A DNA stretch of 64,000 nucleotides from Pseudomonadota bacterium. Lineage in GTDB: Bacteria; Pseudomonadota; Gammaproteobacteria; Burkholderiales; Rhodocyclaceae. A program made the translations under genes and the position numbers. Location of the stretch: positions 1 to 64,000 of the forward strand of contig JAGTRU010000005.1 in the NCBI GenBank assembly GCA_018261905.1. The letters are read 5' to 3'. Under the pieces are notes generated by a model. It was not told where the DNA came from, did not search any database, and saw only the letters and a program-made list of their open reading frames with translations. How positions within the stretch are numbered: the stretch's first letter is position 1; every line of letters starts with the position of its first letter. Below are positions 3,424-4,650 of this stretch, piece by piece.

Positions 3424-3439
3424 TGTCGCAAAGCCGACA
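3424..3439 (+). promoter_or_regulatory. Putative NifA upstream activator sequence
   Basis: TGT, ten bases, ACA: an exact match to the TGT-N10-ACA half-site pattern bound by the nitrogen-fixation activator NifA. It ends 62 bases upstream of the -24 element below, within the usual 60-150 base range for an enhancer working through DNA looping. Alone the pattern is short and could arise by chance; its pairing with a -24/-12 promoter and nif-associated gene families makes it credible. Confidence 0.65.
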
Positions 3440-3501
3440 AGGCCGCAACGCGTTTTTCGGCCAATTCCCGGCCAGCCTTGCGGTGGGCGGGATCGGGTTT
3501 C

Positions 3502-3517
3502 TGGCATTCGTCTTGCA
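3502..3517 (+). promoter_or_regulatory. Sigma-54 (-24/-12) promoter
   Basis: TGGCATTCGTCTTGCA matches the RpoN consensus TGGCAC-G-N4-TTGCA at 14 of the specified positions' key bases, with the invariant GG and GC at the required spacing. Transcription would start about 10-12 bases downstream, leaving a short leader before the rhodanese start codon at 3546. Together with the NifA-like site upstream this indicates control by nitrogen-fixation conditions. Confidence 0.7.
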
Positions 3518-3545
3518 TCAGACGAAATGTCTGATAAATCCGCCA

Positions 3546-3875
3546 ATGCCCATGACTGTTGCCCAACCCTACCGCTGCATCAGCGCCGACGAAGCCGTCG
3601 CCTTGCTCGCCAGCGAAGAAAATGTCAGCGTTTTCGATGTCCGCGACCTGACCAGCTATCGCCTCGGCCACCTCGCCGAGGCCGCCCACCTGACCGAAGA
3701 CCGCCTGCCGGCTTGGTTCCGTCGCCTGGCCAGGGATCAGCCGGTGCTGATCTACTGCTACAAGGGCCACGCCAGCCGGACCTATGCCCAGATGTTCAGC
3801 GACTTCCACTTTACCCGCGTCTTCAGTGTCGATGGCGGTTACGAGCCGCTGGCCGCGGCGCTGGCGGCCGCATGA
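3546..3875 (+). CDS. Single-domain rhodanese (nif-associated, RhdN-like)
   Basis: A 109-residue single-domain rhodanese (sulfurtransferase), predicted to carry a persulfide on the catalytic cysteine C71 within the loop CYKGHAS. The family features DVRD (near 31-34) and a C-terminal GGYEPL element are present. The length is that of GlpE-type proteins. In Azotobacter a rhodanese gene (rhdN) lies in the nifB operon, so a nif-related sulfur role is plausible here given the promoter. ATG 3546 is used; ATG 3552 is equally possible, and no strong ribosome-binding site distinguishes them. Its stop overlaps the next start (ATGA). Confidence 0.85.
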   Translation: MPMTVAQPYRCISADEAVALLASEENVSVFDVRDLTSYRLGHLAEAAHLTEDRLPAWFRRLARDQPVLIYCYKGHASRTYAQMFSDFHFTRVFSVDGGYEPLAAALAAA

Positions 3876-4021
3876 GGCCGGAGTTTCCGCTGTACCTGGC
3901 GGTCGCCAGCAAGGAAGGCATCTCGATCAGCCAACACTTCGGGCACGCCAAGGCCTTTCGCATCTACGAGGTGACGCCGGCCGAATGCCGCTTCCCGGAA
4001 AACCGCGAGGTCGTGGCATGA
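3872..4021 (+). CDS. 49-residue NifX/NifB C-domain-like mini-protein
   Basis: A very short gene whose product contains LAVASKEG and, further on, QHFGHAKAFRIYEV. This is the cofactor-contacting signature of the dinitrogenase iron-molybdenum cofactor domain found in NifX, NafY and the NifB C terminus. That domain is normally about 100 residues, so only its first half (first strands and the HFGHA loop) is present. It does not look like random debris: its ATG overlaps the rhodanese stop and its stop overlaps the start of the transferase gene, so all three genes are coupled. Whether the half-domain folds or binds a metal cluster is unknown. Confidence 0.7.
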   Translation: MRPEFPLYLAVASKEGISISQHFGHAKAFRIYEVTPAECRFPENREVVA

Positions 4022-4650
4022 CCAAGAAGTTCTACATGACGCCAGGTTCCTGTTCGACTGGCATCCACATCCTGCTCGAGGAATGCGGCCTGGTTTTCGA
4101 GGCCTACATCGTCAACCTGCTGGCCGGCGACCAGTACAAGAAGGACTACCTGGCGATCAATCCCAAGGGCAGCGTGCCGGCCCTGGTGCTCGACGACGGC
4201 AGCGCGCTCACCGAATTCTCGGCCATCGCCTGGTGGCTGGCCCGCAGTTACCCGAAACGCAACTTGCTGCCGGGCAGCATCGAAGGCGAAGTGCGCGTCC
4301 TCGGGATCATGAACTACGCCGTGCATACTTTGCATACTCAGGGTTTCGCCCGGATTTTCACGACCGAGCGCTTTTCGCCGAACACCGCCGAGCACGAGAC
4401 GGTCAAGGCACAGGGCCGGCAGATCATCGACCAGGGTTTTGCCATCGTCAATCGCGAACTGGCCGGGCGGGAGTATGTCGCCGAGCAGTTCGGCATCGCC
4501 GATGCGGCGCTGTTTTATGTCGAGTTCTGGGCCGAACGCACCGGCATTCCGCTGCCCGAAAACTGCCTGGCCCATTATCGCCGGATGCTGACCCGACCGG
4601 CGGTGCGCCAGGTGCTGGCCGAAGAGGGCTACGCCTCGGCGCTGCGCTGA
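4018..4650 (+). CDS. Glutathione S-transferase family protein (nif-associated type)
   Basis: A 210-residue soluble GST-fold protein. The N-terminal thioredoxin-like domain (about 1-80) carries TPGSCSTGIHILLEE and the cis-proline region SVPALVLDDGSALTEFSAI, which forms the glutathione site. A helical C-terminal domain follows (about 90-205). The ATG overlaps the previous stop. GSTs of this kind recur beside nifB and nifX-like genes in nitrogen-fixing proteobacteria, consistent with the promoter found here. The substrate is unknown; protection or handling of labile metallocofactors is only a hypothesis. Confidence 0.8.
   Translation: MTKKFYMTPGSCSTGIHILLEECGLVFEAYIVNLLAGDQYKKDYLAINPKGSVPALVLDDGSALTEFSAIAWWLARSYPKRNLLPGSIEGEVRVLGIMNYAVHTLHTQGFARIFTTERFSPNTAEHETVKAQGRQIIDQGFAIVNRELAGREYVAEQFGIADAALFYVEFWAERTGIPLPENCLAHYRRMLTRPAVRQVLAEEGYASALR

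What the first reader, a model, noticed from the sequence alone, without database searches (positions are those of the whole stretch)
3424..4650. A nif-type (NifA/sigma-54) operon of rhodanese, cofactor mini-protein and glutathione transferase
Seen: TGT-N10-ACA followed 62 bp later by a correctly spaced -24/-12 promoter, then three genes joined by ATGA-type overlaps. Known: NifA and RpoN control nif genes, and rhodanese and GST genes recur near nifB in diazotrophs. Inference: this is a dedicated accessory operon for FeMo-cofactor assembly or protection, outside any nif cluster visible here. The rhodanese could supply sulfur, the mini-protein could hold a cluster and the GST could handle thiols.
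Basis: partly seen in the sequence, partly recalled or inferred. Interest (0 to 1): 0.8.

Follow-up and report, generated by a model that had tools for sequence, protein, structure and literature searches.

The report
Nitrogen-fixation accessory operon with gene remnant
A small gene set outside the nitrogen-fixation clusters carries the control signals of nitrogen-fixation genes; two of its three genes are conserved enzymes, and the tiny middle gene is best explained as the stump left by a deletion that removed two genes still present in Azotobacter.

Summary
In detail: TGT-N10-ACA (3424-3439), a -24/-12 element 62 bp on (3502-3516) and three ATGA-overlapped genes. The pair is rarer than chance (0.01 expected) and precedes the same operon in the 26 best GST matches by E-value, 26 of 26. 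The genome holds nifH (two), nifA and rpoN over cut-off. GST orthologues track nifH (21 of 24 genomes with GST, 14 of 36 without). NifA/sigma-54 control is well supported by sequence; no transcript was measured.

One correction: the 49-aa "cofactor mini-protein" is most likely a deletion scar. Azotobacter has nitroreductase-type gene - rhodanese/ankyrin - full-length NifX-domain protein - X - GST behind the same kind of box. The mini-protein matches the first 46 residues of that NifX-domain protein (72.7% over 44 residues) and stops at the X/GST overlap. X is a helical family with two invariant cysteines and no Pfam or NCBIfam match; it fills the middle slot in 18 of the 26. A copy here lies on another contig.

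The function (thiol or sulfane-sulfur support of nitrogenase maturation or protection) is inference.

The parts
3424..3439 (+). NifA-type upstream activating sequence TGTCGCAAAGCCGACA
   Evidence: exact TGT-N10-ACA; its end triplets are invariant in 12 aligned upstream regions chosen by me
3502..3516 (+). sigma-54 -24/-12 promoter TGGCATTCGTCTTGC
   Evidence: only exact TGGC-N7-TTGC of 6 in the window with a UAS within 250 bp upstream; TGG and TTGC invariant
3546..3875 (+). single-domain rhodanese, 109 aa, active-site-like loop CYKGHAS
   Evidence: PF00581 51.1 bits; protein P0002; below the GlpE equivalog cut-off (78.6 against 102)
3872..4021 (+). 49-aa frame: truncated 5' end of a NifX-domain gene (probable deletion scar), ATGA-overlapped on both sides
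   Evidence: PF02579 positions 3-31 of 94; 72.7% over 44 residues to Azotobacter NifX-domain protein; alignment and junction; frame stops where 31 of 31 others continue
4018..4650 (+). beta-class-like glutathione transferase, 210 aa, Cys12 in PGSCS
   Evidence: GST_N_2 59.3 bits, GST_C_2 27.4 bits; C12 invariant in 23 aligned orthologues; below the GstA equivalog cut-off (113.9 against 198)

Best explanation
This is a NifA/sigma-54-controlled accessory operon of a diazotroph of the Azonexus/Dechloromonas group, reduced by deletion. The longer form, seen in Azotobacter, is nitroreductase-type (SagB-like) gene - rhodanese/ankyrin - NifX-domain protein - X - GST. Here a deletion, most simply one event, joined codon ~46 of the NifX-domain gene to the last codons of X, leaving a 49-aa frame that keeps the ATGA couplings to rhodanese and GST. 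Under nitrogen limitation NifA bound at 3424-3439 would activate sigma-54 polymerase at 3502-3516 and switch on rhodanese and GST. I infer that rhodanese relays sulfane sulfur and that GST (Cys12) acts on glutathione mixed disulfides, persulfides or oxidised thiols, supporting maturation or protection of nitrogenase Fe-S/cofactor proteins. Shown by sequence: anatomy, conservation of the control elements, link to nif, resemblance and junction of the mini-protein. Inferred: NifA binding, transcription, the number of deletion events, enzyme activities, physiological role.
For: Box and promoter upstream in 26 of the 26 best GST matches, about 3.3 kb before GST in 3 of 3 Azotobacter loci and 2.9 kb in L179; 17 of 18 invariant columns in 12 aligned upstream regions lie in box or promoter. 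Genome-wide 7 pairs, 0 in control, one of them before nifB. nifH x2, nifA, rpoN over cut-off. GST with nifH 21 of 24 against 14 of 36, p 1.6e-4; X with nifH 32 of 36 against 15 of 40, p 3e-6; in the class, X in 10 of 369 genomes, 9 of the 10 with nifH, nifH in 32 of 369. Mini-protein: 72.7% to Azotobacter NifX-domain protein; 23 bases at the GST junction equal those of L154's X/GST junction.
Against: No expression data. Of the other 54 of the 80 best GST loci only L198 has the strict pair within 1.5 kb, so nif control is not a property of the whole GST family. No strict pair was found before the operon in 2 of 2 Azomonas loci. 14 nifH-bearing genomes of 60 lack the GST orthologue. X copies outside the operon also occur in genomes other than this one, so the X copy here may be a paralogue rather than the lost gene. 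No sister strain with the undeleted locus was seen, so the deletion is reconstructed from more distant relatives.
Confidence: 0.72

Rival explanations
1. The mini-protein is a functional short cofactor- or cluster-binding peptide.
For: It keeps a start, both ATGA couplings and host-like codon composition (GC3 0.86), and the retained part is the conserved HFGHA region.
Against: It covers positions 3-31 of 94 of the domain. None of 31 other loci examined stops there, and none of the 26 best operons has such a frame. Its end coincides with the X/GST junction.
Confidence: 0.1
2. The operon is under sigma-54 control by another enhancer-binding protein (for example a VnfA-like regulator) rather than NifA itself.
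For: The genome has a second, lower-scoring NifA-like protein at C14:136707 (481.5 bits, below the 528.85 cut-off) and more than 20 weaker matches to the NifA model.
Against: The TGT-N10-ACA box is the NifA-type site (recalled), and the same pair lies before nifB in this genome.
Confidence: 0.12
3. Rhodanese and GST serve general thiol or oxidative stress defence that is merely induced along with nitrogen fixation, with no role in nitrogenase maturation.
For: More distant GST relatives mostly lack the NifA pair, and five loci inspected showed no obvious nif genes.
Against: Co-occurrence with nifH, and neighbours with NifX domain or X in relatives.
Confidence: 0.3
4. The box and promoter are chance matches.
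For: Each half-pattern alone is at chance level in the window.
Against: The pair is rarer than chance and conserved upstream of these genes.
Confidence: 0.02

Closest known systems
Operon beside polyamine-type ABC transporter genes of Azotobacter vinelandii CA (NC_021149.1, in 4927961-4940581), also in A. chroococcum and A. beijerinckii
   Same: NifA-type box and -24/-12 element, rhodanese, NifX domain, GST in the same order
   Different: Azotobacter has in addition a nitroreductase-type gene, ankyrin repeats on rhodanese, the complete NifX-domain protein and X
Rhodanese-X-GST operon of Azonexus/Dechloromonas (18 of the 26 best loci)
   Same: Box, promoter, rhodanese and GST
   Different: X stands where the window has the NifX-domain remnant
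GlpE-type rhodanese
   Same: Single PF00581 domain, similar active-site loop
   Different: Below the GlpE equivalog cut-off (78.6 against 102 bits); NifA-type control
Beta-class glutathione transferase (GstA, PDB 1a0f)
   Same: Length, domains and PGSCS cysteine; class name recalled
   Different: Below the GstA equivalog cut-off (113.9 against 198 bits); NifA-type control
NifX / NifB C-terminal domain (PF02579)
   Same: N-terminal third of the domain
   Different: Most of the domain is missing; NifX and NifB equivalog cut-offs not reached
rhdN and grx genes of the A. vinelandii minor nif cluster (recalled)
   Same: Rhodanese and thiol chemistry under nif control
   Different: Different genes and place; not compared by sequence here

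Membership tests
NifA/sigma-54 regulon | TGT-N10-ACA box upstream of a TGG-N9/10-TGC -24/-12 element | tested here: met
   conserved in 26 of 26 loci
NifA/sigma-54 regulon | nifA and rpoN in the genome | tested here: met
   668.2 and 465.5 bits, both over cut-off
NifA/sigma-54 regulon | transcription depends on NifA, RpoN and nitrogen status | not testable with these tools
   no expression data for this genome
Rhodanese (PF00581) | domain over cut-off with active-site cysteine | tested here: met
   51.1 against 22.2 bits; CYKGHAS in P0002; activity not tested
GlpE equivalog | NF001195 cut-off 102 bits | tested here: not met
   78.6 bits
Glutathione transferase | GST_N and GST_C domains over cut-off | tested here: met
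   PF13409 59.3, PF13410 27.4 against 24.9
GstA equivalog | NF007831 cut-off 198 bits | tested here: not met
   113.9 bits
Nitro_FeMo-Co domain protein (PF02579) | complete domain | tested here: not met
   31.6 against 26.3 bits, but positions 3-31 of 94 only
Nitro_FeMo-Co domain protein (PF02579) | binds FeMo-co, NifB-co or an Fe-S cluster | not testable with these tools
   needs protein

The most novel reading that the evidence does not exclude
The nitroreductase-type protein, rhodanese, NifX-domain protein, X and GST form an undescribed NifA-driven thiol/persulfide module that builds, carries or repairs nitrogenase metal clusters, with X a new all-helical, two-cysteine carrier or adaptor family. 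This genome would run a pared-down version: rhodanese and GST here, and a separate X copy with its own NifA-type box on another contig.
Probability: 0.25. Interest if true: 0.7.

Novelty: new member of a known kind. Interest (0 to 1): 0.5.

Why it matters
It points to an operon of the NifA regulon, present also in the model diazotroph A. vinelandii, that I did not find described in ten full-text searches of the held open-access library. It gives a testable set of accessory factors, one of them (X) without a Pfam or NCBIfam match, that could matter for nitrogenase maturation or protection. It also shows that a first look at a short frame between conserved genes can mistake a deletion scar for a mini-protein.

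Tried and rejected
Rejected: a chance promoter; the mini-protein as a piece of this genome's NifB (23 of 48 aligned positions against 35 of 48 for the Azotobacter NifX-domain protein; both counts include the two terminal residues, which the alignment puts at the far end of the full-length proteins). A frameshift in the mini-protein was set aside because GST coding follows at once and the junction matches the X/GST junction of L154.

Mended while checking: I first took open-frame lengths as showing that other matches are long. Those frames are counted stop to stop (the mini-protein itself is listed at 210), so they show nothing. One search replaces them: 32 loci, 31 of them other genomes, and in 31 of 31 the frame runs 70 residues or more past the match.

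Without yield: X against Pfam and NCBIfam and PDB sequences (best E 0.17); fold search of the X model (switched off); plasmid records (57 with a GST relative, best 64.9%).

Literature: ten full-text searches. Eleven papers were opened by term only, none read in full: passages seen in PMC4465626, PMC12811062, PMC6606865, PMC5748707, PMC8907163, PMC10581106, PMC13382767, PMC3912193; no occurrence of the terms in PMC3916325, PMC8467165, PMC2820453. PMC12811062 says that a hypothetical gene next to the A. vinelandii pot operon, Avin_48770, has reduced fitness on sucrose and glycerol; I could not tell whether it belongs to this operon.

Full report
What is there. The window carries TGTCGCAAAGCCGACA at 3424-3439 and TGGCATTCGTCTTGC at 3502-3516, 62 bases apart. 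Rhodanese (3546-3875), a 49-aa frame (3872-4021) and GST (4018-4650) follow, each joined to the next by an ATGA overlap. Each half of the control pattern alone is not above chance in the window. The exact pair at 40-100 bp occurs once against a mean of 0.01 in 300 simulations. In the whole genome the pair at 55-85 bp gives 7 sites (on C11, C24, C34, C40, C43, C63, C67), with 0 for the reversed pattern. The C67 site lies before the nifB frame and the C34 site before a gene that I read as nifV. The genes behind the sites on C11, C40, C43 and C63 were not identified; C43 and C63 were not looked at. A looser pattern, for which I ran no chance control, gives 9 pairs in 12 stretches of this genome fetched for nifH, PF02579, NifA-model or box hits.

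The organism. nifH is present twice over cut-off, nifA scores 668 bits, rpoN 465 bits, and PF02579 has 12 matches, one of them the mini-protein. The window is on contig C24; the nifH, nifA and nifB loci lie on other contigs.

GST and nifH. A GST orthologue is in 24 of 60 genomes of the genus including this one, the others at 77-91% identity, one match partial (G053). Of the 24, 21 have nifH at E <= 1e-60; of the 36 without it, 14 do (Fisher p 1.6e-4). The exceptions G005, G012 and G021 have mini-protein matches in frames of 510-513 aa, which I take to be NifB.

Named relatives. A scan of the genome collection kept the best 80 of 423 loci. The 26 best by E-value (L153-L178, 72-91% identity) have box and promoter upstream in 26 of 26 cases: 18 are rhodanese-X-GST, 6 rhodanese-GST, 1 GST alone, 1 rhodanese-GST-NifX-domain gene. 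Of the other 54, one (L198) has the pair within 1.5 kb with that pattern. Among these 54, L184 lies beside nif-type genes (NafY, FdxN, NifT, NifK and NifE matches) and L210 beside NifE, NifN and NifX matches, while five loci inspected by eye (L193, L199, L205, L221, L222) showed no obvious nif genes. So nif control belongs to this clade and to Azotobacter, not to the whole GST family. These named loci and the genus genomes overlap and are not independent samples.

Azotobacter. A. vinelandii, A. chroococcum and A. beijerinckii have the box TGTCACAAAGCCGACA and a promoter 63-64 bp on, about 3.3 kb before GST; L179 has the pair 2.9 kb before GST. Behind it lie a 559-aa protein with PF00881 nitroreductase matches ('SagB-type' is my recalled label), rhodanese with ankyrin repeats, a NifX-domain protein matching PF02579 positions 2-92 of 94, X and GST. 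Two Azomonas loci (L192, L210) have the same genes but gave no strict pair before them. The search covered 13 loci and also found pairs elsewhere, in L181, L182, L184, L200 and L232, and in L210 behind GST. In an alignment of 12 upstream regions chosen by me, 17 of 18 invariant columns lie in the box or the promoter.

The mini-protein. It is 72.7% identical over 44 residues to the NifX-domain protein of the three Azotobacter loci, 70.5% and 61.4% in the Azomonas loci, and 53.7% in L176. On a multiple alignment it has 35 of 48 positions in common with A. vinelandii and A. chroococcum, against 23 of 48 with this genome's NifB end and 22-23 of 47 with standalone relatives. It ends after the residue that corresponds to 46 of that protein, plus VA. 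From GGCATGACC on, 23 bases equal the X/GST junction of L154. The simplest account is one deletion from inside the NifX-domain gene to the last codons of X; two events are not excluded. In 32 loci of P0001 matches the frame of the 31 others runs 70-95 residues past the match, while here it stops.

X. X is about 120 aa; D21, C22, D32, K34, C35, K36 and M37 are invariant in 33 aligned sequences. Four X proteins tried against Pfam and three against NCBIfam matched nothing. AlphaFold gives six helices, mean pLDDT 92.1, pTM 0.85. X is in 36 of 76 genus genomes, 32 of the 36 with nifH, against 15 of 40 without X (p 3e-6). In 369 genomes of the class it is in 10, of which 9 have nifH and G356 does not, while nifH is in 32 of 369. 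In G272, X lies between a NifX-like gene and nifE by my reading of the frames. Of seven genus genomes whose operon lacks X (G000, G005, G008, G010, G016, G045, G048), five have a copy elsewhere and two (G008, G048) none. The copy here, C26:262771-263094, has a stop inside the matched stretch, a -24/-12-like site 42 bp before its first possible start and a NifA-type box behind that site. It may be a paralogue rather than the gene lost from the operon.

How it likely works. NifA-driven expression under nitrogen limitation is the best-supported step. Rhodanese chemistry (sulfane sulfur) and GST chemistry (glutathione, Cys12) follow from the families. That they serve nitrogenase maturation or protection is inference from control and co-occurrence. 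GST was the search query, so its presence in all loci is by construction; rhodanese is in 25 of the 26 best.

Selection. Window against relatives: GST dN 0.046-0.119, dS 0.50-0.76 (4 comparisons); rhodanese dN 0.17-0.28, dS 0.64-1.05 (3); the mini-protein frame dN 0.25-0.28, dS 0.69-2.4 (4). For the last, most of the divergence should predate the deletion, so it does not show that the remnant is still under selection.

Noticed in passing
L154:5633-6001, L183:5627-5995; own copy G000:C26:262771-263094 (L137): X: about 120 aa, all-helical model, two invariant cysteines, no Pfam or NCBIfam match, 9 of 10 X-bearing genomes of the class have nifH.
   Followed up: partly
G000:C14:136707-146888 (L009, L010): A second nifH over cut-off, with a ferredoxin-like frame behind it, a lower-scoring NifA-like regulator before it and two PF02579 frames nearby; may be an alternative nitrogenase cluster, its D/G/K genes were not tested.
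   Followed up: no
L140:7095-9017 (G049:C75): A standalone 120-aa NifX-domain protein beside frames that I read as molybdate-binding Mop-type and ModE-like proteins.
   Followed up: no
L193:9600-11750 (also X relatives in L186, L190, L194): In Thiobacillus/Hydrogenophilales records a more distant X relative (38-41% identity) lies about 5 kb behind the GST relative; in L193 near Rieske-like and ankyrin frames.
   Followed up: no
L083, L087, L157 upstream of GST: NifA-type box and -24/-12 element stand directly before GST with no rhodanese between.
   Followed up: no
L041:5102-5570 (G000:C40): Box and promoter pair before a 137-aa frame of unknown kind, followed by a TonB-receptor-like frame.
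   Followed up: no
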